35,334 nucleotides of DNA from Bacillota bacterium (GTDB taxonomy: Bacteria; Bacillota_I; Bacilli_A; Erysipelotrichales; Erysipelotrichaceae), in the NCBI GenBank assembly GCA_023249475.1, contig JAHFCO010000025.1, positions 1-35,334 of the forward strand. Direction: 5' to 3'. The notes under the pieces were generated by a model. It searched no databases. It had not been told where the DNA came from and saw only the letters and a list, made by a program, of their open reading frames with translations. Positions 21,229 through 35,334 of this stretch are shown here, piece by piece. The translations under genes and the position numbers were made by a program. The number at the start of each line of letters is the position of its first letter. Position 1 is the stretch's first letter.

Positions 21229-21260
21229 TTCATCCGTTTCAATGATCCTTCATTGCATAA

Positions 21261-21298
21261 ACAAACATCCCTTATCGACAATGATAAGGGATGTTTGT
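21261..21298. terminator. Long-stem terminator shared by convergent genes
   Basis: ACAAACATCCCTTATC (21261-21276) and GATAAGGGATGTTTGT (21283-21298) form a perfect 16-bp stem with a 6-base loop. It lies between the convergent serine hydrolase and alpha/beta hydrolase genes; T-rich flanks exist on both sides, so it can serve both. Confidence 0.9.
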
Positions 21299-21309
21299 CT
21301 TGTTTGACG

Positions 21310-22215
21310 TTATTTCAGAACGCGATCGAGAAAAGCGAACACGCGATCGATGTTGGCTTGGCTGGCGAACTGCGGGTCGCCATGATCCGCCCCTTTTAAG
21401 ATCGAGAATTCGACGCGGTTTTCACCGGCGACTTCCTTCAACTTTTCGGCGAACGCGATGGATTGCTGGACGGGGACCAAGTGATCGACATCCCCGTGTT
21501 GAATCAGGAAGAACGGCGAGTCCGGATGGACATAGGTCATCGGGTTCGCTTGCACCACGACGCTCGGGTCGAGCTTGGTGATCTGCCCACCCATGTATAA
21601 CGATTCAGGTGAATCGGCCTCGCTGTGATTCTGGGGACCCAATCCGTTCTGTGCGAGTTGGTTGTCCATCGCCAGGAAATCCGTAGGGCCGAACCAGTCG
21701 ACACAGGCGTTTACCTGGGTGTCGAACTCGGGATGCCCTAACCCCAAGTCATCCAATTCAAGGTTTTTCGGGGTGAGCGCGATCATCGCGCTTAGGTTCC
21801 CGCCGGCGGATCCACCGACCACGGCGATTCGATTCCGATCGAATCCATAGGTGTCCGCCATCGCTTTGATGAACCGAACCGCCGCCTTGCAATCGTGGAC
21901 GGCCGCGGGGAATTTCGCTTCATCGCTTAACCTGTAGTTGATGCTGACGACCGCATATCCGCGTTTGAGTCCTTCCAGGTAGGGGGTCAGTTGATGATCC
22001 CGTTTATCCCCTTTTTTAAAGGCTCCGCCATGGATGTGGATCAACACGGGGAATTTCCCTTCCGCTTTATCCGGAAGATAGATGTCCAAGGTTTGCGATT
22101 TCGATACGAAAGCATACGGGATATCCAAATGCTTGATTTCAATCATTGAGATATCCGCCGGTTTCTTCTTCGTTCTCTCTGACGAGTAGGCCGGGATCAT
22201 GTCGTCTTTTTTCAT
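21310..22215 (-). CDS. Alpha/beta hydrolase, carboxylesterase/lipase (BD-FAE-like)
   Basis: A 301-residue esterase-type enzyme, numbered from the ATG at 22215. The oxyanion-hole motif HIHGGAFKKG (60-69) and nucleophile elbow GGSAGGN (134-140, S136) are clear. The acid is D242 or D244 in QHGDVDHLVP and the histidine is H278 in GADHGD. This pattern is that of acetylesterases and feruloyl-type esterases, which often remove acyl groups from plant sugars. A longer frame starts at 22257, but AAGGATGAAGAAACG precedes the chosen ATG and the extra residues overlap the hairpin. It follows the PTS EIIC gene, so deacylation of an imported sugar is a reasonable inference. Confidence 0.92.
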   Translation of the reverse strand: MKKDDMIPAYSSERTKKKPADISMIEIKHLDIPYAFVSKSQTLDIYLPDKAEGKFPVLIHIHGGAFKKGDKRDHQLTPYLEGLKRGYAVVSINYRLSDEAKFPAAVHDCKAAVRFIKAMADTYGFDRNRIAVVGGSAGGNLSAMIALTPKNLELDDLGLGHPEFDTQVNACVDWFGPTDFLAMDNQLAQNGLGPQNHSEADSPESLYMGGQITKLDPSVVVQANPMTYVHPDSPFFLIQHGDVDHLVPVQQSIAFAEKLKEVAGENRVEFSILKGADHGDPQFASQANIDRVFAFLDRVLK

Positions 22216-22231
22216 CGTTTCTTCATCCTTT

Positions 22232-22264
22232 CGAGAAAAATGTGCACTGACATGCACACTTTTC
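22232..22264 (-). terminator. Weak terminator between EIIC and hydrolase genes
   Basis: On the minus strand TGTGCA (22253-22258) and TGCACA (22241-22246) pair around TGTCAG and can be extended by G-U and A-T pairs to about 10 bp, followed by TTTTTC. It would reduce, not abolish, readthrough from EIIC into the esterase. It may instead be an operator dyad. Confidence 0.5.
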
Positions 22265-22283
22265 GAGTTGACTTGATGTCGCT

Positions 22284-23555
22284 TTATTTTTTCAGGTCGG
22301 CGTCGCGCTTGAGGATCTGTTGATCATAGATGCGTACGAAGGGATAGATCAACACCATCGCCAAGGGGATGGCCAACAATTGCCACAATGCCAACATCCA
22401 GTTACCTTGAACCAAGCCGTAGAGTACGACGGGCATCGACATCGGGATCTGCGCTCCGGTCAGCGGAGGGACGATTTTTAGTGTGAAGCCAAGGTAGAAG
22501 AACACGTTGGTCACGATCGGAATCAACAATACGGTGGGAATGAACATGACCGGATTCAATACGGTCGGCAGTCCGAAGACCATCGGTTCCCCGATATTGA
22601 AGATGGCGGCAGGCATCCCGATCTTAGCCGTTTCCTTAAGTTGTTTCGACTTGCTGAAGAGATAGACCGTCAGGAGGATCGCCACGGTCGATTGGCCGAC
22701 GGCGGTCAAGAAACTCATCCCCATGAAATTGGTGACGGTCTCGCCGGCTTGAAGCTGCGCAAGGCGTTGCATGTCCAGCCCGATCCAGATGGGGATCATG
22801 ACGGAACCGACGACGTTGAATCCATGGATACCGAACCACCAAAGCAGTTGGATGACGACGGTCGCGATGAGATAGGCGCCAAACGATTCACCCATACCCA
22901 GCAGAGGCGTTTGAACGAACTTGAAGATGAATTGATGGATGCTGCCGTAACTCGTCATTCCGAACAAACCCGCCACGATGACGAACAGCGCCGTCGTCAA
23001 CAATGCCGGGATCAAGCTGGCGAAACTACGTTCGACATAGGGCGGCACACCTTCGGGCATTTTGATCGTCCACTTGTTTTTCGTGATGAAGACGACGAGT
23101 TTGACGGAGACCAATGCAACAAGGATAGCGACGAACAATCCGCTCGCCCCCAGCCAAGCGAAGTCGTACTGCGTTACGATCATCGGGAAGGAACCCGACT
23201 GCATGAACGGCGTGACCACGAAGAACGAAATCAAGGCGATGACCCCCGCGGAAAGCGCGTCGACCCCTTCGTTCTTTGCGTAGTTATAGGCGATGAGGAA
23301 TGACGTGTAGACGCTCATCAACCCGAGGGTGACGTAATAGGGGATCAAGACATAACGCTGGATCCCGCTTGTGGTCAACGCGTTGACAAAGGCGTTGATC
23401 GGGAAGTTCGCGATCAGATAGGAAACCGAACCGACGATGGTCACCGGAAGCAAACTCATGAACCCTGACGAAACCGCCTGCAAGCTTTTATTATTGGAGA
23501 TTTTCTCTGAAATCGGAAGCAAATACTTTTCTAGGATGTGAACCAGTTTATCCAT
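22284..23555 (-). CDS. PTS EIIC, lactose/cellobiose family
   Basis: A 423-residue sugar-translocating channel of the Lac/Cel family (CelB/ChbC/LacE-like), with about ten membrane segments. The start MDKLVHILEKYLLPISEKISNN and the conserved FGIHGFNVVG, IFNIGEPMVFGLP and FYLGFTLKIVPP (in the last third) match CelB-type proteins. The EIIA and EIIB partners are not in this window and must be encoded elsewhere. Its promoter contains the 14-bp palindrome also found before the RpiR gene that lies just upstream, so this regulator probably controls it. Confidence 0.95.
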   Translation of the reverse strand: MDKLVHILEKYLLPISEKISNNKSLQAVSSGFMSLLPVTIVGSVSYLIANFPINAFVNALTTSGIQRYVLIPYYVTLGLMSVYTSFLIAYNYAKNEGVDALSAGVIALISFFVVTPFMQSGSFPMIVTQYDFAWLGASGLFVAILVALVSVKLVVFITKNKWTIKMPEGVPPYVERSFASLIPALLTTALFVIVAGLFGMTSYGSIHQFIFKFVQTPLLGMGESFGAYLIATVVIQLLWWFGIHGFNVVGSVMIPIWIGLDMQRLAQLQAGETVTNFMGMSFLTAVGQSTVAILLTVYLFSKSKQLKETAKIGMPAAIFNIGEPMVFGLPTVLNPVMFIPTVLLIPIVTNVFFYLGFTLKIVPPLTGAQIPMSMPVVLYGLVQGNWMLALWQLLAIPLAMVLIYPFVRIYDQQILKRDADLKK

Positions 23556-23591
23556 ACTCTTCCTCCTTGGATGTGAACCCTTTCTGTTTCA

Positions 23592-23620
23592 ATTTTATCA
23601 CAATGTGAAATGCATTTCAA
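23592..23620 (-). promoter_or_regulatory. Promoter of EIIC with RpiR-type operator
   Basis: On the minus strand TTGAAA (23615-23620), 17 bases, TAAAAT (23592-23597). The perfect palindrome TGAAATGCATTTCA (23606-23619) covers the -35 and part of the spacer. The same 14-bp sequence lies in the promoter at 24452-24481. Confidence 0.85.
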
Positions 23621-23651
23621 ATAATATTTTTTATGATTTACATACCAATTA

Positions 23652-23673
23652 AAAGAGATCTTTCGATCTCTTT
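23652..23673 (-). terminator. Terminator of the first RpiR-type gene
   Basis: On the minus strand AAAGAGATC, GAAA and GATCTCTTT form a perfect 9-bp hairpin with a GNRA tetraloop, ending in TTTTAATT. It overlaps the stop region of the regulator. Confidence 0.75.
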
Positions 23674-24434
23674 CACAGACTCAGGTAATATATGAGGATT
23701 TCATTGAAGATCGCGAGGATCGGCACACTATCCAGCAAGGATTGGCTTTTCAAGTTGGTGATCGAGGGGAGCACCACGGCTTGCGTGCTCTTTTTCTTGT
23801 ATTCGGTGTCCGGGTTCATGGTGACCAGGATCGTTTTCGCATTCCCGCTTTCCGCCAATTGAAAGGCGTATTTGACGATCGACGACTTTGCCCCGACCGA
23901 GTAGATCAAAAAGAGGTCCTCTTCCTTGACGCACATATCGATCGTATGAAGCTTCTCCTCCGAGTCGAAGACCGATGTCTCGATGCCGAACATCAGTAAG
24001 GCATAATGGAGTTGCCATGCGGAAACCGAACTGTTGACCACCCCGACGATCCGGATTCGCCGTGCACCGCGGATCAGCCCGACGATCCCCGTCATTTCGC
24101 TGTCCTTTACGAATTGCGGCAGAAGTTTCAGAATATCATGGTATTTATTGACGATCTTCTCGATCTTCTCGATCGGCTCGCTCTCGATCGATGGCATTTG
24201 CGACGTACTGTTGACGTACTTGATGCATTCATACTTGAACTCGTTGTATCCGCTATACCCGATTTTCTGACAAAAGCGCAGGATCGTCGGCTTGGTCATG
24301 TCGATTCTTTCCGCCAGTTCGGAAAACGAGTTCCGCTGGACGTGGATCAGATTCTCGAGAATCAAGTCGCAGACCTTAAGTTCGCTCTTGGTCAAGGTAT
24401 TGCGCTTACTGTGAATATTGGCTAGGAAGTCCAT
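23673..24434 (-). CDS. RpiR/MurR family sugar-responsive regulator (left copy)
   Basis: A 253-residue regulator. The N-terminal helix-turn-helix (about 1-75) carries LTKSELKVCDLILEN and DMTKPTILRFCQKIGYSGYNEFK. The C-terminal SIS domain (about 120-250), RRIRIVGVVNSSVSAWQLHYAL, binds a phosphosugar. Numbering starts at the ATG at 24434, which has AACGAGGTGATGAA upstream. It stands alone between its own promoter, with a perfect 18-bp palindrome, and a terminator. The same palindrome core controls the EIIC gene downstream, so it is the probable repressor or activator of EIIC and the esterase and also regulates itself. Confidence 0.93.
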   Translation of the reverse strand: MDFLANIHSKRNTLTKSELKVCDLILENLIHVQRNSFSELAERIDMTKPTILRFCQKIGYSGYNEFKYECIKYVNSTSQMPSIESEPIEKIEKIVNKYHDILKLLPQFVKDSEMTGIVGLIRGARRIRIVGVVNSSVSAWQLHYALLMFGIETSVFDSEEKLHTIDMCVKEEDLFLIYSVGAKSSIVKYAFQLAESGNAKTILVTMNPDTEYKKKSTQAVVLPSITNLKSQSLLDSVPILAIFNEILIYYLSL

Positions 24435-24451
24435 TTCATCACCTCGTTTCT

Positions 24452-24481
24452 ATTATACATTCATTTGAAATGCATTTCAAA
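24452..24481 (-). promoter_or_regulatory. Promoter and 18-bp palindromic operator of the RpiR gene
   Basis: On the minus strand TTGAAA (24475-24480), 17 bases, TATAAT (24452-24457). TTTGAAATGCATTTCAAA (24464-24481) is a perfect 18-bp palindrome that overlaps the -35. Its 14-bp core recurs before EIIC. Confidence 0.9.
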
Positions 24482-24504
24482 ACGAAATCATGATTTGTTT
24501 CTCA

Positions 24505-24534
24505 ATGAAAAATAGTCCGGGATCCGGACTATTT
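24505..24534 (-). terminator. Terminator of the mannosidase/PTS operon
   Basis: On the minus strand AAATAGTCCGG, ATC and CCGGACTATTT form an 11-bp hairpin followed by a T-run. It overlaps the EIIA stop codon. Confidence 0.92.
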
Positions 24535-25011
24535 CAGTTTCAGCTCGAGGACGGGGTCGACGGCACTGATTTTACCGTTGACCTTCATGAAATTCATATC
24601 GAACATCGCGCTGTTGGTCACGACGACCATCGTCGTCTTGGAATACCCTTTTTGCATGATGCCTTCGAAATCGACTTTGAGTAACGGTTGACCGGCTTTG
24701 ACTTCCTGCCCTTCAGTGACCAAGGACTCGAACCCCTCCCCCTTCAATTCGACCGTATCGATCCCGACATGGATCAACACTTCGACGCCCGACTCGCCGA
24801 TCAATCCGACCGCATGCTTCGTCGGGAACACGAAGGCGATTTTCCCGTCGAAGGGAGCCACGATCGTCGTGTCGTCCGGTTCGACCGCATAGCCTTCACC
24901 CATCATCTTCTTGGCGAACACTTCATCGCTAACGTGACTCAACTCGATCAATTCCCCGCTAACGACTGCGTTTACCTTAAGTTTTTTCTTACCGAATAAC
25001 AGTGATTTCAT
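24529..25011 (-). CDS. PTS EIIA, glucose family (Crr-like)
   Basis: A 160-residue soluble phosphocarrier. It accepts phosphate from HPr on H81 in VLIHVGIDTV and passes it to the EIIB domain. The second conserved histidine H66 lies in TKHAVGL. The order SGELIELSHVSDEVFA, GEGYAVEP and APFDGKI matches the family. AAAGGATCCACG precedes the ATG. It is the last gene of the operon with the mannosidase and EIICB, 56 bases after the EIICB stop. Confidence 0.95.
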   Translation of the reverse strand: MKSLLFGKKKLKVNAVVSGELIELSHVSDEVFAKKMMGEGYAVEPDDTTIVAPFDGKIAFVFPTKHAVGLIGESGVEVLIHVGIDTVELKGEGFESLVTEGQEVKAGQPLLKVDFEGIMQKGYSKTTMVVVTNSAMFDMNFMKVNGKISAVDPVLELKLK

Positions 25012-25067
25012 CGTGGATCCTTTCTATGGTGGTGATGTCGACCCGTTTTCATAGGTCGACACGCTTT

Positions 25068-26681
25068 CTACTTCAAACTGAACAGATAGTTGTCGACGAC
25101 GTTGCGGACCTTGGTGATTCTGCCGCCATACACGATATGGACCACGTTCTTCCCCGGACGGACGATCCCGTTGGGTTGGGTCTTGTTGATCAGGGCTTCG
25201 TTGACAAGGGAGTCGTCTTTGAGTTCGACGCGTAGACGGGAGATGCAGTTGTCCACATCGACGATGTTCGCGGCTCCGCCGAGTCCTTCAATGACGAATT
25301 TCGCCAATTCGACATCTTTGTCGGCTTGAACCACGGCCGCGTTGGTGTCGGAATCTTCGTCGACGAAGTCGCTTTCACGACGTCCGACGGTCAAGACGTT
25401 GAACTTGCGGATGATGAAGGAGTAGGTGTAGTAGTACATCGCAAAGAACAAGGGACCGGCGATCAGGTAGATGTACCATTTGGTATCCATGCCTTGAAGG
25501 ACACCGAAGACGAACCAGTCGATGATGCCGCCTTGGATGTTCCCGATCGCGACGTTCAACAATGCGGGTACCCAGAAAGCCAAACCGGCAAATACGGCGT
25601 TGACGACCCAGAGGATCGGGGAGATGAAGATGAAGGTGAATTCGATCGGTTCGGTGATGCCGGTGAGGATGACCGCGGTCAAGCCGGCCATGAAGAATTT
25701 CAGAACACGGTCGCGTTTCTCAGGCAGAGCGCATTTGTACATGGCGAATACGGCCGCAGGCATCCCGAAGACCATATGCAGGATTTTGCCTTGGGCAAGA
25801 TACTGGGTCGCATTGGTCGAGAAGGCCAGGTTGTTTTCCAATTGATACAAGTAGATCTGGAGCGCGCCGACCAGCGACGTGCCGTTGATCGTCTCGACGC
25901 CGCCAAGAGCGGTGAATCGGAACGTTTGGTTCAGGATATGGTGCAATCCGGTCGGGTTGATGACTTTTTCGACGAATCCGTAGAAGAAGGCGCCCCAGAG
26001 TCCGGCATCGCTGATCATTTTACCGGATGCGATGATGGCGGTGTTGACGACCGGCCAAACATAGGTCAGCGCAATCCCGACAAGCACCATCAGCAAGGTG
26101 GTGATGATCGGTACGAAGCGTTTGCCGCTATAGAACGATAAGGAAGCATGGAGTTCGGTTGCACGGAATTTATTGTGGATCAGGACGGTCGCGACCCCCG
26201 CGATGATTCCGCCGATGACATTCATATTATAGACGAAGATCCCTAGGACGTTGGTGAAGAGCGCGTTGGTCAACGTCGCGTCGACTTGGCTCAAGCCCTT
26301 GACTTCCATCAGGCTGGCGACGGATGTGGTCGCCGAAGTCAATCCTTGAAGTTGCAGGAAATAACTCATCCCCATCAACATCGCGATGTAGCCGACCAAA
26401 GCGGAGTAAACCGCGACTTCACGGTCGCGCTTTACCATCCCCAACGGAATGGATAGGGCGAATAAGACAGGCAGTTGACCAAACGGTAGACCGGCGATCC
26501 GGCGAATCAGACCCAGGACGTTCTGGATGTTCGTATCGGCCAGGAAAGGAAGGGTTTTAATGATGTTCGGGTTTTGAAGCGCAGCCGCCAAGCCAAGGAA
26601 GATGGCCATGAACGACAAGAGCGAGATCGGGAACAATAACGACTTTCCAAAACTTTGGAAATTCTTTTTGAATTCAGACAT
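25068..26681 (-). CDS. PTS EIICB, glucose/maltose superfamily
   Basis: A 537-residue fusion. The EIIC domain (about 1-420) has some ten membrane segments with the family signatures GLHHILNQTFRF, FMFGMP-like MVFGMPAAVFAMYKCA and TGITEPIEFTFIF. A linker rich in acidic residues leads to the EIIB domain (about 455-537), whose phosphorylated cysteine is C479 in VDNCISRLRVEL. The family includes glucose, maltose (MalX) and alpha-glucoside permeases. Because an alpha-mannosidase is made from the same transcript, the substrate is probably a mannose-containing glycoside. AAAGGAGAAAGAA precedes the ATG. Confidence 0.95.
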   Translation of the reverse strand: MSEFKKNFQSFGKSLLFPISLLSFMAIFLGLAAALQNPNIIKTLPFLADTNIQNVLGLIRRIAGLPFGQLPVLFALSIPLGMVKRDREVAVYSALVGYIAMLMGMSYFLQLQGLTSATTSVASLMEVKGLSQVDATLTNALFTNVLGIFVYNMNVIGGIIAGVATVLIHNKFRATELHASLSFYSGKRFVPIITTLLMVLVGIALTYVWPVVNTAIIASGKMISDAGLWGAFFYGFVEKVINPTGLHHILNQTFRFTALGGVETINGTSLVGALQIYLYQLENNLAFSTNATQYLAQGKILHMVFGMPAAVFAMYKCALPEKRDRVLKFFMAGLTAVILTGITEPIEFTFIFISPILWVVNAVFAGLAFWVPALLNVAIGNIQGGIIDWFVFGVLQGMDTKWYIYLIAGPLFFAMYYYTYSFIIRKFNVLTVGRRESDFVDEDSDTNAAVVQADKDVELAKFVIEGLGGAANIVDVDNCISRLRVELKDDSLVNEALINKTQPNGIVRPGKNVVHIVYGGRITKVRNVVDNYLFSLK

Positions 26682-26710
26682 TTCTTTCTCCTTTGTTACG
26701 TGTTAGGTAG

Positions 26711-29272
26711 TTATATGATGAATTGAAGGATTTCTTGAGGGTTGAGTTGCGTTGTTTCCAACGGCCGTGGCGAGGATTCCATCGCGTCGATGCGACGTAC
26801 GCCTTCAGGCAGTTCCATCAGAATCGGTTGATCCCACGGGTTGAACACCCTCACCATGAGATGGTTTCCATCTTCCGTGCGTTTGGTCGCACTGACGATG
26901 GCGCCTTGCAACTCCAATGATAATGCGAAATCCGGTTTATGCAACTGCTTTGGCGTATTTAGATTGAAGCGGTTGAATTCTTTCTTCTGATAGCCGATCA
27001 GAGGACTTACATACGCCTTGGCGCACTGCGCGGGATGGCATGAACCGAAATCGAACCGCAAAGCGAAGCGGAACGTGAATTTCTGACCAATCAACTGATT
27101 CCCCGGTGTTTCCACTTCGATCCCCGAGGGTCTGCCGGGTCGATTGACGAGATTCCGCTTTCCAAGATGCGAGAAACTGCGATAAAGCGTCACATAGATT
27201 CGATCGTCGACCACTTCGTATTCTTTCAACCCCTGCGTGAAGATCGCCGCTTTCCGCCGATCTTCCTCGATCATGACATAGCTCTGGCAGGTTTCGACGC
27301 TGACCGGTTTCTCAACCCACGCCTCCTTTTCCCAGACCTCCAATTCCTCTTTAAGATATATCGGCTTGTGTTGGGCGGAAAGATATCCGTCGACCAACAC
27401 GCGATCGGCCCGGCGCTGCGTTTTGAACGCGATCCGGTATCGGGTATCGATGCTTTGATTGACCGTGCTCAGTTCGCAATGGATCATTGCGTCCCCCCTG
27501 AACAGGCGAATCGATCCTTGATAATGGATGGTTTGGGCGTCGACCCCCGCCGCCCTTTCATCCAAGGTCGCGGGAACCACCATGTCCAAATCAAACATTA
27601 GTTCCTGCATGAATCCCCCACATTGAGTCCGTGTCTTGAACCGACCTGTCTGAGTGCTTGAAACGATTCGATCCACAACCGGCGGCGAGTAATCGTAACT
27701 GTCCCCGGCATCCCCTCCGTTTTCGATGGACAGGAGGTTCTCGATGACTTCCCCGCTGGCTTTATCGAGAAGCGTGATCTGATTGTTTTCGATCATGATC
27801 CGATATCGCTCGTTTTCGATGGCGGATTGCGATACTTCCCCACTTTGCGCGGTGTCTCGATGATCCGTCTCTTCGTATCTTAAATATCGAACCTGTAACC
27901 CTTTGATCTCATCAAGAACAAAGACGACTTTACTAAGATAGACTTGAATATCCAACAACCGTGCGGCGACCTGCCTGTCGATTTTCCCTGCGTCCTCGAC
28001 CGTCTGCTTTACAAGCGTATAGTCGATTTCTTTCCCCTGTTCGTCATAGAGTTTGAAATGCGACGAACGGGTTTGCAGTTCTACTTCCACTCTCTCCTCC
28101 TTTCTGTGTTGGGGTAATAGATTCGCAACGACTATCGTTCTACTTTCGTCCCGGTCGGCCATCGCCAACAGTCGCAAGTACAACTCGATCTGGGTGTCGA
28201 CCAACTCTTTCGCGTTGATCAGACGTTGTTTGATGTCTTGGTTGACATCGTCGGTATTGCATCCGCCGATACTGTCATGGGCATGGACGCCGAACAACAG
28301 TTTCAGGATCTTCTCGATGACCGCATGCGGATACAACATCCCGGCTTCGCTCAGGATCACCGCGAGGGGTTCAAGGACATCGAACACTTTATGCTCGATT
28401 TCGCTATTGAGGAGTTTAATGTCCATCCGCGTCGAACCGATCGTGCGATGGATGCGGGAATGTTTACTGTGGGTCAGTTCACCCTCGACCACTTCCAAGG
28501 GTTGCCCCTTCAAGGCCGTGATGTAGGATTCGAAGTCGCTCACCTTCACGTCGTCCTGCGGGTACATCGCTTTCAGTTTCGCGACGATTTCCTGGATGTT
28601 TTCCTGTATGGGCATTTGGTCGTGCCCGTTCATGATCAAGCGCGCGTCGGTGGATGAGTATTTATCGAGTACGGACAAGATCTTGTCCATCCTCTGCTTC
28701 AACGGGATTTCTTGGTTTTCGAGGTATTTCGCCCCTTGGTATCCGGTCGCAAGGTTGACCCCGATGATCTGTGAACCATCCACGCCTTCCCAGAGAAAGT
28801 CGGAGTGTTGCGCCTTCAGTTCGCTGAACCCGCGCCAGAAGATGGTCGATTCGATCTTGAACATCCGATAGATTTGCGGCATCTGGCTCGCATGCCCGAA
28901 GGTATCCGGTGCATATCCGACCAACATGGGATCCCCGAAATCCTGCGCCCGCTTGATTCCGTAGTAGAGGTTGCGTAGAATCGATTCCCCATGGACCAGA
29001 AGCAGATCCGTTTGCGTATACCAAGGTCCGACACGAAGTTGCTTATTCCCGACGAAGCGCTTTAGTTTCGATTCGAAGTCCGGTTGGAGTTCCAGCACAT
29101 CGTCGATCATGACGCTTTGCCCATCCAGGATGTAGATGCATTGCGGATTGGACGCCAAATAGTCGAAGACGTTCTCCATGTGGTTATGCAACCATACTTT
29201 CGTCTCGTCTTTGGAGAAATACCACTCACGATCCCAATGCGTGTGCATGATGATCTGGATTTGTCTGCCCAT
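26711..29272 (-). CDS. Glycoside hydrolase family 38 alpha-mannosidase
   Basis: An 853-residue cytoplasmic alpha-mannosidase with the layout of MngB (mannosylglycerate hydrolase). The zinc site begins with HTHWD (10-14: H10, H12, D14), the nucleophile is D123 in GYAPDTFGHASQMPQ, and further zinc contacts lie in FGVHAHDSIGGCN. The catalytic domain fills about 1-270, followed by the GH38 middle domain and C-terminal beta domains. No signal peptide is present, which fits cleavage after phosphorylating uptake. GCGAGGAGGG precedes the ATG. It is the first gene of the operon with EIICB and EIIA, placed 120 bases downstream of an RpiR gene. E. coli mngB is paired with a fructose-type PTS, whereas here the transporter is glucose-type. 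Confidence 0.95.
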   Translation of the reverse strand: MGRQIQIIMHTHWDREWYFSKDETKVWLHNHMENVFDYLASNPQCIYILDGQSVMIDDVLELQPDFESKLKRFVGNKQLRVGPWYTQTDLLLVHGESILRNLYYGIKRAQDFGDPMLVGYAPDTFGHASQMPQIYRMFKIESTIFWRGFSELKAQHSDFLWEGVDGSQIIGVNLATGYQGAKYLENQEIPLKQRMDKILSVLDKYSSTDARLIMNGHDQMPIQENIQEIVAKLKAMYPQDDVKVSDFESYITALKGQPLEVVEGELTHSKHSRIHRTIGSTRMDIKLLNSEIEHKVFDVLEPLAVILSEAGMLYPHAVIEKILKLLFGVHAHDSIGGCNTDDVNQDIKQRLINAKELVDTQIELYLRLLAMADRDESRTIVVANLLPQHRKEERVEVELQTRSSHFKLYDEQGKEIDYTLVKQTVEDAGKIDRQVAARLLDIQVYLSKVVFVLDEIKGLQVRYLRYEETDHRDTAQSGEVSQSAIENERYRIMIENNQITLLDKASGEVIENLLSIENGGDAGDSYDYSPPVVDRIVSSTQTGRFKTRTQCGGFMQELMFDLDMVVPATLDERAAGVDAQTIHYQGSIRLFRGDAMIHCELSTVNQSIDTRYRIAFKTQRRADRVLVDGYLSAQHKPIYLKEELEVWEKEAWVEKPVSVETCQSYVMIEEDRRKAAIFTQGLKEYEVVDDRIYVTLYRSFSHLGKRNLVNRPGRPSGIEVETPGNQLIGQKFTFRFALRFDFGSCHPAQCAKAYVSPLIGYQKKEFNRFNLNTPKQLHKPDFALSLELQGAIVSATKRTEDGNHLMVRVFNPWDQPILMELPEGVRRIDAMESSPRPLETTQLNPQEILQFII

Positions 29273-29306
29273 GTGAACCCTCCTCGCGGAAATCGCTTAC
29301 ATGCAA

Positions 29307-29334
29307 ATTATAGAAGGGCACAAACGTCATGCCC
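29307..29334 (-). promoter_or_regulatory. Promoter of the mannosidase operon with inverted repeat
   Basis: A perfect minus-strand TATAAT (29307-29312) lacks a good -35. At the -35 position the inverted repeat GGGCA (29316-29320) / TGCCC (29330-29334) is found. A weak -35 overlapped by a dyad fits control by a regulator, possibly the RpiR protein encoded next door. Confidence 0.55.
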
Positions 29335-29357
29335 TCCATCGATACGGATAATTATCC

Positions 29358-29386
29358 ATAATAAAAGCCCCGAGGACTCGGAGCTT
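29358..29386 (-). terminator. Terminator of the right RpiR-type gene
   Basis: On the minus strand AAGCTCCGA and TCGGGGCTT pair over 9 bp, with one G-U, around GTCC and are followed by TTATT. It lies just after the RpiR stop. Confidence 0.85.
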
Positions 29387-29392
29387 GTTTTC

Positions 29393-30133
29393 CTACATAT
29401 TCTTTCGTTTCGCCTTGAATTCGATCTCCAACTGGTCGATGATTTCATTCAGCATGATGATCATATGCAACTGCTGTTCCCTTGAAATCCCGTCGAGTTT
29501 GTCGACCGGCACATCGTGCAGGAAGGTCGCATCGCAATATTGCGTGATCGCACTGTTGCTTTTGGTGATCGCCAGTACGGTCATGTGCAATTCTTTCGCC
29601 CGTTTCACCATCTGGAGACATCGCATGGTCTCGCCCGAACTCGAAATCACAAGGAGCAGGTAATCCTTGAAATTCTCCAACATTTTCTCTTGTTCGATCA
29701 AGATGGTCGGGATCCCGAAATAGAGGAGTTGGCGTTGGAAATACTGTGCCGAAATGTTGGAGGCACCCAACCCGAAAAGCAACACTTTACGGTTTCCGTT
29801 GAGGATCTGTTTCACGACTTCCTGCGTCCCTTCGAAACGGATCTTTTCCAAAATGTTTTCCGTTTTCGAAATATGGCGTGTCGTCGCCGTATCCATCAAA
29901 TGAAGATCCTGTGCGATAGCGAATTTCAACTCGCTGAAGCCTGCGAAACCCAAGGTTTTGCAGGCCCGGTTCACCGTCGCTTGGGAAGTGAAACTCTTCT
30001 CCGTCAGTTGCGTGACGGTCATTTTTGGCAATAATCGAAAGTTCTTCTCCAGAAAGTCGAGGACCGCTTCCTCGCTGCTACTGACAGGATGCCCGAAATT
30101 ACGTTCTTTGAGTTGATTGATGACTTTGTACAT
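29393..30133 (-). CDS. RpiR/MurR family sugar-responsive regulator (right copy)
   Basis: A 246-residue regulator: HTH domain (about 1-75) with VSSSEEAVLDFLEKNF and SFTSQATVNRACKTLGFAGFSELK, then a SIS domain (about 105-240) with KVLLFGLGASNISAQYFQRQL and VISSSGETMRC. The SSSGET sequence is the phosphosugar-contacting loop of SIS domains. It lies upstream of the mannosidase/PTS operon on the same strand but is separated by a terminator, so it is probably a local regulator of that operon. GAGGAGGACTCCG precedes the ATG. I did not find the palindrome of the left RpiR gene here. Confidence 0.93.
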   Translation of the reverse strand: MYKVINQLKERNFGHPVSSSEEAVLDFLEKNFRLLPKMTVTQLTEKSFTSQATVNRACKTLGFAGFSELKFAIAQDLHLMDTATTRHISKTENILEKIRFEGTQEVVKQILNGNRKVLLFGLGASNISAQYFQRQLLYFGIPTILIEQEKMLENFKDYLLLVISSSGETMRCLQMVKRAKELHMTVLAITKSNSAITQYCDATFLHDVPVDKLDGISREQQLHMIIMLNEIIDQLEIEFKAKRKNM

Positions 30134-30228
30134 CGGAGTCCTCCTCAGTGGTTTCCCTAGTCAAATCTTACCATAATTACCCAATCTCGGCGCAGGGTTC
30201 AATCGGGTTCTCCCGACATTGCATATCT

Positions 30229-31113
30229 CTAGACCGACTCGAGAAGCTTGGCGAGCCTTTGAATCATCTCTCTCGATTCCGGTATCCCAAACAACATCCA
30301 GGCATGAAGCATGTCTTCATATTCGAAGTAGTCCATTTCGATTCCTTCCATAGTACATCTTTCTTTGAGTTTGCGTGCATCCGCAAGCATGATTTCATGG
30401 GTCCCGACAAAACAAACGATACGCGCCAATCCCTTGAGATCCCCATGAATCGGCGAAATTCGTTTTGCCTTTTCCTCGGTGTCCGGCCCATATACCCTAC
30501 CCACATTCTGCAACCCCTCCACATCCAGGATGAGGTCGAGATCGGCCAATTTTTGGATCTCGGGATTGGTCAACTCGGCATCCAACCATGGGGACAACAG
30601 TACGATCCGCCGAGGTTGAGGAAGCGTTTCTTCCTTCAACATCATGGCTAGCGCAAGCGCTAGCCCGCCTCCGGCAGAATCACCGATGATGAGGAGGTCC
30701 GAGGCATTCTTGTCAGAGAGTAAATGGCGATACGTTTCCATCAGTAGGGCAAACGTCTCCTCCGCGTGTCCGTGAGGCGCTAAAGGGTAGTCGGGAATCA
30801 TCATGGAGCAATTTAATTCGCGCATCAACTTAACGACGAACTTCCAGTGAAGATAACTCATGCCATAAAGGTAGGCTCCGCCGTGAAGATATAGGACATG
30901 GCGTGATGGAATCACGCCCTTTGGTTGAAGAATGACCACGTTCCGATCTAGAATCTTGATCATCTTTACTTTGGCGGCATTGTATATGAAAGGTGGCGGA
31001 AATCCAGCCTTGGAATCCGTCTTATTTTTGCCTGATAATCCACGCGAATAAATCTTCTCTTTTGGAATCATTCTAAATATAGAATTCAGAATCTTGCTTT
31101 GAAAACTTGCCAT
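30229..31113 (-). CDS. Alpha/beta hydrolase, hormone-sensitive-lipase (Aes) family
   Basis: A 294-residue esterase of the HSL family. HGGAYLYG (77-84) is the oxyanion-hole motif, GDSAGGG (144-150) holds nucleophile S146, and H270 in MLHAWMLF completes the triad. The acid is E240 or D245 in GTHEIMLADAR; in this family an aspartate is usual here. The substrates are probably short acyl esters. GAGGTACT precedes the ATG. It is a single-gene unit, and the terminator of the tRNA lies upstream. It differs from the esterase at 21310 in family and sequence, so it is not a duplicate. Confidence 0.9.
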   Translation of the reverse strand: MASFQSKILNSIFRMIPKEKIYSRGLSGKNKTDSKAGFPPPFIYNAAKVKMIKILDRNVVILQPKGVIPSRHVLYLHGGAYLYGMSYLHWKFVVKLMRELNCSMMIPDYPLAPHGHAEETFALLMETYRHLLSDKNASDLLIIGDSAGGGLALALAMMLKEETLPQPRRIVLLSPWLDAELTNPEIQKLADLDLILDVEGLQNVGRVYGPDTEEKAKRISPIHGDLKGLARIVCFVGTHEIMLADARKLKERCTMEGIEMDYFEYEDMLHAWMLFGIPESREMIQRLAKLLESV

Positions 31114-31180
31114 AGTACCTCGACGGTTCGATCCGATCGACCCAGTTCAACGTATCATGGATACCACTTCATTTCAAGAC

Positions 31181-31202
31181 AAAAAAATCCACTTTCGTGG
31201 AT
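31181..31202 (-). terminator. Terminator of tRNA-Leu
   Basis: On the minus strand ATCCAC, GAAA and GTGGAT form a hairpin with a GNRA loop, followed by TTTTTTT. It lies 12 bases after the tRNA 3' end. Confidence 0.93.
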
Positions 31203-31213
31203 GTTTTTTCTCA

Positions 31214-31296
31214 TGGTGCACCAGGCGGGACTTGAACCCGCACGGTTGCCCACACGCTTCTGAGACGTGCGCGTATGCCTATTCCGCCACTGGTGC
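31214..31296 (-). tRNA. tRNA-Leu (anticodon CAG)
   Basis: 83 bases in cloverleaf order: acceptor GCACCAG / CTGGTGC, D-arm with GGCGGAATAGGCATACGC, anticodon stem CACGT/GCGTG with loop CTCAGAA (anticodon CAG, codon CUG), a class II variable arm around TGTGGGCAACC, and T-arm GCGGG-TTCAAGT-CCCGC. The terminal CCA is encoded. The long variable arm and anticodon identify leucine. Confidence 0.97.
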
Positions 31297-31311
31297 GTGA
31301 CTTGCTTTACA

Positions 31312-31317
31312 ATTATA
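31312..31317 (-). promoter_or_regulatory. Extended -10 promoter of tRNA-Leu
   Basis: TGT followed by TATAAT on the minus strand lies 15 bases before the tRNA 5' end. A TTGACG is present upstream but only 8 bases away, so it cannot act as the -35. Confidence 0.5.
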
Positions 31318-31539
31318 ACAAATTCCGTCAACATTTCCATACTTTTTTAAGAAAAAAAAGGATGTCGCAAATTTTACTCCCTCTGTAAGGAGGGAATACA
31401 TATAAAGCAAGATTACAAAAGCAAACACAGCATCAAAGCAAAAGCAGAATGATAAGGAAACATCAATGTTATAGTATTTTTTTGTTCAGAAAATATAACT
31501 ATGATATATGATCCTAAAAAGTAGTTGCTGTCACATCGC
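31318..31539. other. A+T-rich spacer beside tRNA-Leu, no gene found
   Basis: This stretch is much richer in A and T than the rest of the window. It holds a perfect TCCCTC/GAGGGA inverted repeat (31378-31395), which may be a weak terminator for the gene at 31540, and several scattered AAAGCA words (31404-31446). No duplicated tRNA end is visible. Confidence 0.5.
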
Positions 31540-32664
31540 TCATAATCTAGCACAATAACTCATTAATGCGAATTTCGTTTGATCTCGCATTTCCTTACTA
31601 TGAGTTACTATGAATTTATCAATTGCTTTTACATCATTCTTAATTAAAATAAAGTTTTCAATCTCTAATTCAAAGTCTTTGGCTTGCCTGGCTTTGTTTT
31701 CTACATCAATTGATGTGATGCTTTCATCTAGCTCTACCACTGCGACAATTCCATCCTGCATAAAATTAGTTTCAAAGAAATAATCCGTGTAATATATATC
31801 GTCTGAACTATACATAGTTTCAGTAATACCAAGTTCCTCAAATAAACCACGTTTTACGCAAAAATCTAGCCTGGGTTTCGAAATAAATGAATCATAATCT
31901 GTTTGCGACATTGCTTCAGTCGCCGAAACATAAATCCAACTTCCCCCGTTTGAGTAAGCAGCATTCTGAGAACGTCGCGTTAGAATGATTTCGTTGCTAC
32001 TTTTTAATCGCACAATGATACTTACACCTATAGATGTTCTTAGAAATTTGAGTTCATTATTTAGACTGTTTAAAGAAAAAATCTGGTCAAGCGGTTTCAA
32101 AGAATCAATCGTTTCTTCGATCACCTTATGAGTAAAATGGTCGGTATTGAATAACTTAATAGTTAAAATTGGCTTTTCAACTTCATCACAGGTACGTGAG
32201 AATGAATCCACATAGCTTACTCCATATCGTGCCCCATTAAAATACAGACCATTCTTTCTTTCCAAAAATCCCTTTGCGATTTTTGTCCGGGCATGTTCCA
32301 ATGCTTCCTTGAAGATTTCTTGAGAAACGCCTTTTATGGATATTGGAAAGTCACAAACATCTTCTTGCGAAAAACTTCCGCTACTAGCAGGTAACGATGG
32401 TAGCAAATCATGGGGAAATGCTAAAAACATTTCAGTTCTTTCATCCATTTGAATGTAAATATCAGCAATCGTAAACTTAGGCTTACCAATTGCTAGTGTC
32501 AAGATAGGCGTCTCTTCCAATATGATCTTTTCTTTCAAGTTTCTCACTTTTTTCTGAACTTTTTTGTGCCTTATGCGTAGATTTACCTTCTCATAAATCG
32601 CATCAAATAACTTTTGAGCAAAATAACCAACTAGAAATGATACTACTGCGATTATAATTTCCAT
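31540..32664 (-). CDS. Membrane-anchored NUDIX-like protein, probable defence-associated
   Basis: A 374-residue protein with an N-terminal membrane helix (about 2-20), a basic linker (KVNLRIRHKKVQKKVRN), a middle region of unknown fold, and a C-terminal NUDIX-like domain (about 210-360). The box RGLFEELGI matches REUxEExGU at every conserved position except one Glu-to-Gly change; the metal-binding EE pair is kept. The layout recalls the SMODS-associated membrane-NUDIX proteins of nucleotide-signalling defence loci, but I cannot confirm the family. The DNA and codon use are far richer in A+T than both neighbours. The ATG at 32664 has AAAGGA upstream; a TTG two codons earlier is too close to it. 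No partner gene is visible. Confidence 0.55.
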   Translation of the reverse strand: MEIIIAVVSFLVGYFAQKLFDAIYEKVNLRIRHKKVQKKVRNLKEKIILEETPILTLAIGKPKFTIADIYIQMDERTEMFLAFPHDLLPSLPASSGSFSQEDVCDFPISIKGVSQEIFKEALEHARTKIAKGFLERKNGLYFNGARYGVSYVDSFSRTCDEVEKPILTIKLFNTDHFTHKVIEETIDSLKPLDQIFSLNSLNNELKFLRTSIGVSIIVRLKSSNEIILTRRSQNAAYSNGGSWIYVSATEAMSQTDYDSFISKPRLDFCVKRGLFEELGITETMYSSDDIYYTDYFFETNFMQDGIVAVVELDESITSIDVENKARQAKDFELEIENFILIKNDVKAIDKFIVTHSKEMRDQTKFALMSYCARL

Positions 32665-32670
32665 AGTCAA

Positions 32671-32811
32671 TCCTTTCTATAGAATATTTGAATACCAAAT
32701 CAATACTAGTTTTTGCTAAGATGTGGCTAATACCAAACATTTATATGTTTTTTTCAAAAGACAAATATAGTAAGCGAAACAATAAGTTACTAGGAATCCG
32801 ACCTATTAATC
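32671..32811. other. A+T-rich spacer upstream of the NUDIX-like gene
   Basis: No gene found. It contains an all-A/T hairpin (32735-32750) and no direct repeat of the other edge of the A+T-rich stretch. A promoter for the NUDIX-like gene is expected here, but I could not identify one that fits its ribosome binding site. Confidence 0.4.
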
Positions 32812-33612
32812 TTACAGGTGTAAATCGCGACGGGGGAAACGGATGAACGCCATTCCCAATCCGATCAAAATCAAGAGGAGACTCAACCCGAGATAGAGAG
32901 GATCCAGTGTCAACTTATCCAGGATGTCGGGGGAGGGGAAATACTTGAAGGGAAGGAAGGGTCTCATCCATCCGGAGTTTTCCAACATATCCATGACGAC
33001 CGTACCCAGATAGGCGAAACCCATGACGCTCAACATGATCATGGAAGACTTACGGTTGTCTCTCAGAGCGCCGGACAAGCCGAACGACAGACAGTAGAAA
33101 ACCAGCATGATAAGGATCAGTGAAATCAAGAAGAGCGTGATTTCCGATGTGATGTCTTCACTCGGGGCGACTTTCTTCACCAACACGAACGAAATCACGG
33201 CTTCGACCGCGACGAACGCCACGACATAGACCAGTCCCGCCAACAGTTTTTGACCGAGGACCGAAGCGCGGAAAATCGGTTTGACCATCAGGAACTCCGC
33301 GGTTTTGTCTCTTTCCTCTTTCGCCAAAATCCCGGCGCCCAGGATGATCGCATAGACCGCCCCCATGATCATCAGATAGAAATGGATGATCGCATAGAAG
33401 CCACCGATCGATGTCACGTCGATGTTATACATGCCGAACATCGCCAAGAAGGCCTTGGGGAGTTTGTCCATCAGATCCGTGATGTCCTGCCCGCCCGTCG
33501 CATACATCCCCGTGAATTTCCCGATGCCGCCGCCGACCATCGCAAGAATCCCGATCGACCAGAACAACAGGTATTTCCAATACATTTTCAATTCATGAAA
33601 AAACAGGTTCAT
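32812..33612 (-). CDS. ABC-2 type exporter permease (second)
   Basis: A 266-residue membrane protein with six hydrophobic segments: about 14-32, 56-80, 103-130, 138-160, 170-190 and 235-255. It contains the segment IILGAGILAKEERDKTAEFLMVKPI, the EERDKTAEFL motif being typical of ABC-2 permeases. The start at 33612 has AGGAGG 8 bases upstream; a GTG within that binding site (33621) is not used. It forms the membrane pore with the other permease 13 bases upstream. Together with the ATPase it makes a drug, lantibiotic or polyketide-type exporter; the substrate is unknown. Confidence 0.9.
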   Translation of the reverse strand: MNLFFHELKMYWKYLLFWSIGILAMVGGGIGKFTGMYATGGQDITDLMDKLPKAFLAMFGMYNIDVTSIGGFYAIIHFYLMIMGAVYAIILGAGILAKEERDKTAEFLMVKPIFRASVLGQKLLAGLVYVVAFVAVEAVISFVLVKKVAPSEDITSEITLFLISLILIMLVFYCLSFGLSGALRDNRKSSMIMLSVMGFAYLGTVVMDMLENSGWMRPFLPFKYFPSPDILDKLTLDPLYLGLSLLLILIGLGMAFIRFPRRDLHL

Positions 33613-33624
33613 AGCGTGCACCTC

Positions 33625-34419
33625 CTAGAGCGCATGGATGTCTTTACGAACGAAGATGATGAAGCTGGATCCGACAAGGAGGACGATCAAGGCCAGCGAC
33701 CACATCAAGAACACGGGTTCGAAGGACCGGGTCGAGATGATATCGAATTTATCGAAGAACTGAAACGGAGAGAAATAGCGGATCCAAGGGTCGTCGAAGA
33801 CCCCTTTCAACATATTTAAAACGAAGAAGCCGAAGACGACGGAGAGGGAGACCGGGGCGATCGAGCGCAGTTTGCGAAAGGTCGCGCCGCAGAAGATGCC
33901 GATCGATGCGAAGATCAATTGAAGGATGAACGTACTCAGGCTGACCAGAAGCAATCCGCCCATCGAATACGGTTCATTGATGACCCCTAACCCGAAAATC
34001 GTCGCAATCAACAAGACAAGGTTCGTGACGGCGAGGATCGTGAAGATGCTTGCGACCTTCATGGCGAAAACCATCGGTCGCGTCACCGGTTTGGTCAACA
34101 GGAACTCAGACGTACGGGTGCGTGTTTCGCGACCCATCGTTCCCAAGCCGACGATGATCCCTTGAAACGCAACCATCAGTTGGATATAGACTGCGATGAA
34201 GGAGTAAAACCCAAGGACCGTGAAGAATTGGTCGGGATCGAAATCCAACGCGATCAAAAGTTCCTTCGGATAATTCTGCAACATCTCGATCAAAGACGCC
34301 GAACTTTCATAGAAAATCGGGAAGATCTGAAGAAACAAAAACGCCACCAAGCACAGGACGAGCATCCAGATCAGCGTGCTTTTCAGGTTGCTTTTGATTT
34401 CGAAAGTAAAAATGTTCAT
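33625..34419 (-). CDS. ABC-2 type exporter permease (first)
   Basis: A 264-residue membrane protein with about six hydrophobic segments. The segment GLGTMGRETRTRTSEFLLTKPVTRP is the counterpart of the EERDKTAEFL motif in the other permease. Both proteins share a layout with little sequence identity beyond this region, so they are ancient paralogs. The ATG is 3 bases after the ATPase stop, with AAGGAG before it. It is the middle gene of the exporter operon. Confidence 0.9.
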   Translation of the reverse strand: MNIFTFEIKSNLKSTLIWMLVLCLVAFLFLQIFPIFYESSASLIEMLQNYPKELLIALDFDPDQFFTVLGFYSFIAVYIQLMVAFQGIIVGLGTMGRETRTRTSEFLLTKPVTRPMVFAMKVASIFTILAVTNLVLLIATIFGLGVINEPYSMGGLLLVSLSTFILQLIFASIGIFCGATFRKLRSIAPVSLSVVFGFFVLNMLKGVFDDPWIRYFSPFQFFDKFDIISTRSFEPVFLMWSLALIVLLVGSSFIIFVRKDIHAL

Positions 34420-34422
34420 GGC

Positions 34423-35301
34423 TTACTCCTTCTCGTAGTAGTGCATGAAGATCTCTTCGAGATCGGGTTCGCTCATGCTGATGCGGGATACGTCCAACAA
34501 CGAGAGTTTCTTCAACAATTCGTTGGCTTCCCCGTTGTACAGGAAAGACACTTCGCTGCCGTTGACCTTCACATTGTTCATCGACCCGTTGAAGAAGTGC
34601 TCGGGGAGCAGGGATTTCGTTTCCATATCCACTTTCAAATACGTATTTTCCTTCAATGAACTCATGGTGTCGATGCGTACGATCTTGCCGTCTTTGATGA
34701 TGGCGACCCGGTCGCAGATCTTCTGCACTTCGCTGAGGATATGCGAAGAAAACAACACGGTCGCCCCGCGTTTGTTTTCTTCCTTGAGGATTTCGAAGAA
34801 CGTTTGTTGCATCAACGGATCCAAACCCCCGGTCGGTTCATCCAGAATGATGACTTTCGGGGAATGAAGCAAGCCCTGGACGATCCCGACTTTCTTCTTG
34901 TTGCCATAGGAAAGGTCGTCGATCTTGCGGTTGAGATCCAAATCCAAACGTTTCGCCAGTTCCTTGATTTTCGCTGAACAATCCTTCCGATAAAAGGAAG
35001 CCGAATAAGCGAGCAAGTCTTTCACTTTCATATTATCGTAGTAGAAGACTTCGGATGGGAGATACCCGATTTCTTCGTGGATTTTCCGGTAGTCTTTTTG
35101 ACAATCCAAACCGAAGATCGATGCCGACCCTTGCGTCGGTTTGATCAGATCCAGAAGCAAACGGATCGTCGTCGATTTTCCCGCCCCGTTCGGACCGATG
35201 AATCCGAAAATCTCGCCTTCTTCGATGGACAGATCGACTTCCACGATGCCGCGCGATTTTCCATAATACTTTGTCAGTTTCTTTGTTTCAATGATGCCCA
35301 T
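34423..35301 (-). CDS. ABC exporter ATPase
   Basis: A 292-residue ATPase of the ABC-2 export type (BcrA/NatA-like). Walker A GPNGAGKST (36-44), signature LSYGNKKK (130-137, the usual GG appearing as YG), Walker B IILDEP (151-156) with the catalytic E155, and H187 in SSHILS are intact. The last 90 residues form the usual C-terminal extension ending in LEEIFMHYYEKE. A start 30 bases further upstream is open, but AGGAGGTTATC sits at the ATG used here. First gene of the operon; its promoter lies at or beyond the right edge. Confidence 0.95.
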   Translation of the reverse strand: MGIIETKKLTKYYGKSRGIVEVDLSIEEGEIFGFIGPNGAGKSTTIRLLLDLIKPTQGSASIFGLDCQKDYRKIHEEIGYLPSEVFYYDNMKVKDLLAYSASFYRKDCSAKIKELAKRLDLDLNRKIDDLSYGNKKKVGIVQGLLHSPKVIILDEPTGGLDPLMQQTFFEILKEENKRGATVLFSSHILSEVQKICDRVAIIKDGKIVRIDTMSSLKENTYLKVDMETKSLLPEHFFNGSMNNVKVNGSEVSFLYNGEANELLKKLSLLDVSRISMSEPDLEEIFMHYYEKE

Positions 35302-35334
35302 GATAACCTCCTGAAGGATGTAGGACCCCACACG

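What the first reader, a model, noticed from the sequence alone, without database searches (positions are those of the whole stretch)
31318..32811. A+T-rich islet with a lone membrane-NUDIX protein beside tRNA-Leu
The sequence composition changes abruptly. One 60-base line inside (32521-32580) has 19 G or C bases, while a line in the neighbouring ABC permease gene (33121-33180) has 28. The only gene encodes an N-terminal membrane anchor with a NUDIX-like domain whose box (RGLFEELGI) retains the EE metal pair. This architecture recalls membrane-NUDIX effectors from nucleotide-second-messenger defence systems, but here it stands alone, without a visible nucleotidyltransferase partner. A stand-alone effector of a new kind, or a remnant of a larger island, are both possible.
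Basis: partly seen in the sequence, partly recalled or inferred. Interest (0 to 1): 0.72.

Follow-up and report, generated by a model that had tools for sequence, protein, structure and literature searches.

The report
Acquired membrane-anchored Nudix gene
A foreign, A+T-rich single gene beside a tRNA encodes a membrane-anchored relative of the nucleotide-sugar enzyme NUDT22 whose nearest found relatives are fused to TIR immune-signalling domains, so it may be a one-gene nucleotide sensor or effector of bacterial immunity, though that function is untested.

Summary
A 1456-bp islet (31357-32812; G+C 33.6% against 49.9%) carries one gene (31540-32664, minus strand, 374 aa). A 92%-identical sister genome has the empty site: 25 bp holding most of the ABC operon's intrinsic terminator. 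The islet sits between the permease stop codon and that terminator's T-run, on the 5' side of tRNA-Leu. No homologue turned up in the relatives searched, except in two same-family genomes. The protein has one N-terminal membrane helix plus a divergent Nudix protein. By profile and by predicted fold its best solved match is human NUDT22 (UDP-glucose hydrolase), over both domains. The Nudix box keeps R272, E276 and E277 but has lost its glycine and the RE glutamate. The nearest relatives found, 29-30% identical, carry a TIR domain where this protein has its membrane helix, then the same module and a PP2C-like tail (by eye). Streptomyces has TM and soluble versions. No link to CBASS was found: no Sa_NUDIX or PADLOC match, and no SMODS, TIR_2 or ThsB_TIR protein above cut-off in its genome. 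Most likely it is horizontally acquired cargo that works as a membrane-tethered nucleotide sensor or effector; a membrane-bound NDP-X hydrolase is nearly as likely.

The parts
31357..32812 (.). A+T-rich islet (1456 bp), absent from sister genome G001, where 25 bp take its place
   Evidence: blastn: 30263-31356 and 32813-35330 match L010 contiguously at 92%; GC 33.6% against 49.9%
31540..32664 (-). gene for the membrane-anchored NUDT22-like Nudix protein, 374 aa, ATG start
   Evidence: intact ORF, homologues aligned over most of its length
32599..32661 (-). single N-terminal membrane helix (residues 2-22)
   Evidence: Kyte-Doolittle 19-residue maximum 1.7 at residues 2-3, next best outside the N-terminus 0.99; helix 2-47 in the model, mean pLDDT 87 for residues 1-20
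32524..32589 (-). basic stretch after the helix (residues 26-47), pointing to a cytoplasmic C-terminal domain
   Evidence: 11 K/R/H against 2 D/E in residues 26-50; positive-inside rule, inference
32050..32484 (-). NUDT22-like N-terminal domain (residues about 61-205), includes YFNxxxYG, invariant E163 and D175
   Evidence: NUDT22 profile match upstream of the Nudix fold; structural alignment starts at residue 61
31639..32049 (-). Nudix-fold domain (residues about 206-342)
31828..31917 (-). divergent Nudix box E250...R272-G-L-F-E276-E277-L-G279: box Gly replaced by Glu, RE glutamate replaced by Gly, EE pair kept
   Evidence: R272, E276, E277 and E250 invariant in 11 diverse members, residue 273 Gly or Ala in all; hhalign to Nudix profile
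31663..31665 (-). invariant E334 before the last strand, candidate general base or third metal ligand
   Evidence: invariant; aligned with a Glu of NUDT22 in the weak second stretch; role is inference
31345..31356 (-). T-run of the ABC operon's former terminator, left at the far side of the islet
   Evidence: G001 has the complete terminator AAGGTGGGAACATTCCCACCTT-TTTCTT at this site; the window keeps only the T-run
32812..33621 (-). upstream co-directional ABC permease gene; the islet begins at its stop codon (still ending HL*)
31214..31296 (-). tRNA-Leu (CAG), present in both genomes

Best explanation
A single foreign gene was inserted between the last gene of an ABC-transporter operon and that operon's terminator. 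It encodes a cytoplasm-facing, membrane-tethered protein of a bacterial NUDT22-like Nudix family for which no description was found. In this family the same two-domain module (NUDT22-like N-terminal domain plus divergent Nudix fold) carries alternative N-termini: a membrane helix (here and in most Streptomyces members found), a TIR domain (two same-family genomes, which also have a PP2C-like tail), or nothing. The most likely mechanism is that the Nudix module binds, and perhaps slowly hydrolyses, a nucleotide of the NDP-X class (ADP-ribose-type or UDP-sugar), and that binding drives clustering or opening of the membrane helices, as proposed for the TM-macro ThsA effectors of Thoeris. Shown: absence from the sister, foreign composition, family, predicted fold, domain swap, conserved acidic residues. 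Inferred: direction (insertion), ligand, oligomerisation, membrane effect, immune role.
For: Empty site in the sister. Foreign composition. Absent from 195 other family genomes, 391 of the phylum and 394 of the class (the one other class hit, G489, is an ordinary Nudix hydrolase); of 316 order genomes only G728 and G734 have homologues. NUDT22 is the best PDB profile hit for three profiles (E 4.6e-4, 2e-4, 0.012) and the top fold hit (Foldseek E 4e-5, prob 1.00; Z 12.3, rmsd 5.6, 231 aligned over residues 61-374, other Nudix proteins Z 9.5 or less). Nudix profile match. TIR-Nudix fusion relative at 29% identity over 347 residues, E 3e-35, TIR_2 3.5e-12 and ThsB_TIR 1.3e-8; window groups with it at 100/100 support. 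One TIR-Nudix gene lies next to a TIR-AAA_16-TPR gene, another near a recombinase-like gene.
Against: No TIR_2, ThsB_TIR or SMODS protein above cut-off in its own 96%-complete genome, so no obvious producer of a signal. In Streptomyces about 21 of 31 loci lie beside thiC in a shared chromosomal place, which suits a housekeeping enzyme better than defence. The model is of low confidence (mean pLDDT 54, pTM 0.51). Fold does not tell binding from catalysis. No partner gene is shared across all loci.
Confidence: 0.4

Rival explanations
1. Membrane-anchored NDP-X (nucleotide-sugar) pyrophosphatase: like NUDT22 it hydrolyses UDP-sugars or related nucleotides at the inner face of the membrane, controlling envelope precursors or salvaging UMP; a metabolic gene that happened to be transferred.
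For: NUDT22, which hydrolyses UDP-glucose (PMC10101856), is the best match by profile and fold; EE pair plus E250 and E334 are invariant, as expected for metal-dependent catalysis; fixed place beside thiC in many Streptomyces.
Against: The glutamate of RE in the Nudix box is replaced by Gly or Ala in all 11 members tabulated; TIR fusions and a mobile location are unusual for a metabolic enzyme.
Confidence: 0.35
2. CBASS-type membrane-NUDIX effector (Cap16-like) that lost or never needed its nucleotidyltransferase.
For: Same broad architecture, membrane helix plus NUDIX; Cap16 is described as a TM effector with a NUDIX domain (PMC10419184).
Against: No PADLOC match for it or 23 relatives and no Sa_NUDIX match; no SMODS protein above cut-off in the genome; the fusions found among relatives are with TIR, not CD-NTases.
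Confidence: 0.05
3. Lineage-specific loss: the gene is ancestral and was deleted in the sister genome.
For: Only two genomes of the genus are held, so direction rests on indirect evidence; two same-family genomes of another genus have distant homologues.
Against: The empty site carries an intact operon terminator exactly at the junction, which the islet interrupts in the window; composition and codon use are foreign; absent from nearly all relatives searched.
Confidence: 0.07
4. Decaying or chance-retained cargo without a function in this host.
For: Lone gene, foreign codon usage, long branch (1.44).
Against: Full-length ORF without stops or frameshifts; all ten invariant positions of the family alignment kept; it sits co-directionally downstream of an operon whose terminator has been displaced, so read-through transcription is possible.
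Confidence: 0.13

Closest known systems
Human NUDT22 (UDP-glucose/galactose hydrolase; PDB 5lf9, 5lor, 5lou)
   Same: Profile match over the segment before the Nudix fold and the fold itself; predicted fold aligned over residues 61-374; unconventional Nudix box (NUDT22 is a published outlier that lacks a conventional box, PMC5688067)
   Different: NUDT22 is a human enzyme without the N-terminal membrane helix seen here; identity is about 12-14% in the structural alignment; activity of the window protein untested
Thoeris ThsA effectors with TM plus macro domain (PMC11204291)
   Same: Membrane helix followed by a cytoplasmic nucleotide-recognition domain; TIR enzymes make the signal in that system, and TIR is fused to the same module in relatives here
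   Different: Macro domain instead of Nudix; Thoeris has a thsB partner, and none was found in this genome
CBASS Cap16 (membrane effector with NUDIX domain; PMC10419184) and Pfam Sa_NUDIX
   Same: Membrane segment plus NUDIX label
   Different: No profile match; no CD-NTase found; relatives are TIR fusions or stand-alone
TIR-Nudix-PP2C-like proteins of genomes G728 and G734 (loci L078, L079)
   Same: Same NUDT22-like module, 29-30% identical, all tabulated invariant residues shared
   Different: TIR replaces the membrane helix; extra C-terminal domain of about 265 aa
Streptomyces TM and soluble homologues (L003, L012-L044)
   Same: Same domain order; TM helix at the same place in most
   Different: About 17-26% identical, depending on the alignment; many lie beside thiC; soluble ones lack the helix

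Membership tests
Nudix superfamily (clan) | Nudix fold | tested here: met
   Predicted model (low confidence) matches Nudix structures throughout the top of the list; hhalign to a Nudix profile prob 88%, E 3e-6 at the box
Nudix superfamily (clan) | Canonical Nudix box GX5EX7REUXEEXGU | tested here: not met
   G replaced by E250, RE glutamate by G273; R272, E276, E277 kept. No Pfam NUDIX match. Described as a divergent homologue on fold and profile, not as a canonical Nudix hydrolase
NUDT22-like | NUDT22 best match by sequence profile, including the domain before the Nudix fold | tested here: met
   E 4.6e-4, chain residues 103-300, profile built without the window protein; E 2e-4, with it
NUDT22-like | NUDT22 best structural match over both domains | tested here: met
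   Z 12.3, rmsd 5.6, 231 residues, above other Nudix (9.5 or less); model pLDDT 54, so provisional
NUDT22-like | Hydrolysis of UDP-glucose/galactose | not testable with these tools
   Needs an assay; one box glutamate is missing
CBASS membrane-NUDIX effector (Cap16 / Sa_NUDIX) | Match to the Sa_NUDIX or PADLOC models | tested here: not met
CBASS membrane-NUDIX effector (Cap16 / Sa_NUDIX) | Neighbouring or encoded CD-NTase | tested here: not met
   None among the neighbouring ORFs (by eye); PF18144 gives only a sub-threshold 13.3-bit hit in the genome
Thoeris | ThsB TIR partner | tested here: not met
   PF08937 and PF13676 find nothing in G000; draft genome, 96% complete
Thoeris | ThsA effector domain (SIR2-SLOG or macro) | tested here: not met
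   No Pfam match to either; Nudix fold instead
tRNA-associated integrative element | Integrase and attachment repeats at the tRNA 3' end | tested here: not met
   Islet on the 5' side; no integrase; only weak A+T-rich repeats

The most novel reading that the evidence does not exclude
A one-gene bacterial immune effector family in which a NUDT22-type Nudix module is the nucleotide sensor and swaps its N-terminal output between a membrane helix and a TIR domain, spread as single-gene cargo, with no dedicated signal-making partner.
Probability: 0.25. Interest if true: 0.75.

Novelty: new variant of a known kind. Interest (0 to 1): 0.55.

Why it matters
The profile and fold matches suggest a bacterial branch of the odd, outlying human Nudix enzyme NUDT22, and link that fold to TIR domains and membrane helices, frequent outputs of nucleotide-signalling immunity. 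Two phrase searches of the paper library turned up no description of membrane or TIR-Nudix proteins of this kind. If the immune reading holds, it adds a new sensor domain to a well-studied logic, and the single intact gene makes it easy to test. If not, it is a membrane-bound nucleotide-sugar hydrolase of unknown role.

Tried and rejected
Single-protein scans of Pfam, NCBIfam, PADLOC, PHROGs and the PDB gave no convincing match for the window protein. The weak SieB and holin hits cover only the membrane helix region and were set aside. AlphaFold2 on the single sequence was useless (pLDDT 34); the alignment-based model is usable but modest. The hit in G143 is a flavodoxin-like protein in a TGA=Trp organism, a false match. 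The hit in G489 is an ordinary Nudix hydrolase. No relatives of the Nudix module were found in phages or in viral contigs by four pattern scans. The three phage hits cover only the PP2C-like or TIR parts of L078. The idea of a 3'-tRNA integrative element was rejected (islet on the 5' side, no integrase). Direct repeats near the junctions are imperfect and A+T-rich and were not taken as duplications. The PP2C-like tail of the TIR fusions rests on motif order read by eye; Pfam and PDB scans did not confirm it. The caspase-like start of the protein beside soluble Streptomyces members is likewise by eye.

Full report
OBSERVATION. The stretch has 33.6% G+C against 49.9% for the rest of the window; the lowest 1456-bp stretch sampled upstream is 42.0%. 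The gene's third codon positions are 30% G+C, against 55-73% in five neighbours, and its codon usage is the least like that of the other window genes, though the esterase is not far off. The gene is 31540-32664, minus strand, 374 codons with the ATG start.

INSERTION SITE. A sister genome of the same genus (G001) aligns at 92% on both sides: window 30263-31356 and 32813-35330 lie about 25 bp apart there. That spot holds an intrinsic terminator, AAGGTGGGAACATTCCCACCTT followed by TTTCTT, on the minus strand just after the ABC permease gene. In the window the permease keeps its last residues HL and a stop codon, the hairpin is gone, and the T-run remains at the far end of the islet. So a block of 1456 bp sits between stop codon and T-run. 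It lies on the 5' side of tRNA-Leu (31214-31296), has no second ORF of 60 aa within it and no integrase. No terminator-like site was found between the permease and the new gene, so read-through from the ABC operon is possible (inference). That this is an insertion rather than a loss in the sister is inferred from composition, from the intact terminator at the empty site, and from rarity in relatives; only two genomes of the genus are held.

DISTRIBUTION. Profile searches found no other member in 196 genomes of the family, 395 of the class (apart from an ordinary Nudix hydrolase in G489) or 392 of the phylum. Among 316 of the order, two same-family genomes of another genus, G728 and G734, have homologues. 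Streptomyces and relatives have many: 31 loci and several plasmid copies. In about 21 of the 31 the gene lies beside thiC in a shared neighbourhood, and in the rest it stands in varied places. Soluble versions in S. pseudogriseolus (L037) and on an S. clavuligerus plasmid (L013) lie divergently beside a protein of about 1510 aa; the L037 copy has AAA_16/NACHT-like and beta-propeller matches, and the L013 copy has the same length and arrangement.

PROTEIN. One hydrophobic helix (residues 2-22) is followed by a strongly basic stretch (11 K/R/H against 2 D/E in residues 26-50), which by the positive-inside rule puts the large domain in the cytoplasm. No library model recognises the rest. With 24 aligned sequences AlphaFold2 gives a modest model (pLDDT 54, pTM 0.51). 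Its six best Foldseek matches are all human NUDT22 (E 4e-5 to 4e-4). VIA-align gives NUDT22 Z 12.3 (rmsd 5.6, 231 residues) over residues 61-374, with other Nudix proteins at 9.5 or less. Sequence profiles agree: a profile of six bacterial members without the window protein finds NUDT22 at E 4.6e-4 over residues 103-300 of the chain, one with window and TIR relatives finds it at 2e-4, and no other solved protein is significant in either. A profile of ordinary Nudix proteins aligns at the box with probability 88%. A profile of only the window protein and its two TIR relatives found nothing in the PDB.

ACTIVE SITE. Across 11 diverse members R272, E276, E277, E250 and E334 are invariant, while the glycine that opens the Nudix box is E250 and the glutamate of RE is Gly or Ala. 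NUDT22 is itself described as lacking a conventional box (PMC5688067) and still hydrolyses UDP-glucose (PMC10101856), so activity cannot be ruled in or out.

TIR RELATIVES. L078 and L079 are 781-aa proteins: TIR (for L078 TIR_2 3.5e-12, ThsB_TIR 1.3e-8), then the same module at 29-30% identity (E 3e-35 over 347 residues; the match begins just after the membrane helix), then about 265 residues with PP2C-like motif order (by eye; not confirmed). The window protein groups with them at 100/100 support, though its branch is long. A third, distant relative, L080, has a weak TIR-like start (TIR_2 0.007, below cut-off) and lies about 6.6 kb from a recombinase-like gene. L078 lies 1.6 kb from a TIR-AAA_16-TPR gene. 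A change of N-terminal part between TIR and membrane helix over a constant nucleotide-binding-type module resembles immune effectors such as ThsA of Thoeris, where a TM-macro form exists beside SIR2-SLOG forms and ligand binding is proposed to cluster the helices (PMC11204291). Nudix domains have been listed among possible effectors acting on ADP-ribose or NAD in conflict systems (PMC7159879).

WHAT SPEAKS AGAINST AN IMMUNE ROLE. The own genome has no TIR_2, ThsB_TIR or SMODS protein above cut-off, the gene has no visible partner, and many Streptomyces copies look like fixed chromosomal genes. The membrane-bound hydrolase reading is therefore nearly as likely.

VERDICT. The CBASS comparison is not supported; a NUDT22-like module with TIR and TM variants is. 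Function remains an inference.

Noticed in passing
window 21060-30262: A second, larger difference from sister genome G001: about 9.2 kb (including a GH38-like alpha-mannosidase gene at 26711-29272 and an RpiR-type regulator at 29393-30133, both named by eye) is replaced there by about 290 bp, 1.1 kb away from the islet.
   Followed up: no
L078 (763-3108, +), L079 (439-2784, -): TIR + NUDT22-like Nudix + PP2C-like three-domain proteins in two same-family genomes; no such architecture was found in the papers searched.
   Followed up: partly
L081 12039-14507 (-): TIR-AAA_16-TPR gene near the TIR-Nudix-PP2C-like gene; G728 and G734 each carry six or seven ThsB_TIR matches.
   Followed up: no
L037 3252-7781 (-) and L013 407-4939 (-): Soluble NUDT22-like genes of two Streptomyces species lie divergently beside a protein of about 1510 aa, with AAA/NACHT-like and beta-propeller matches in L037 and caspase-like motifs by eye, a possible conflict system.
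   Followed up: partly
L014 5970-9077 (+): In about 21 Streptomyces-group loci the TM-Nudix gene lies beside thiC, usually directly after it; the reason for the linkage is unknown.
   Followed up: partly
L082 2-1507 and L080 784-2229: The distant TIR-like-Nudix gene is A+T-rich (GC 35% against 44% around) and lies about 6.6 kb from a serine-recombinase-like gene, so it too looks mobile.
   Followed up: no
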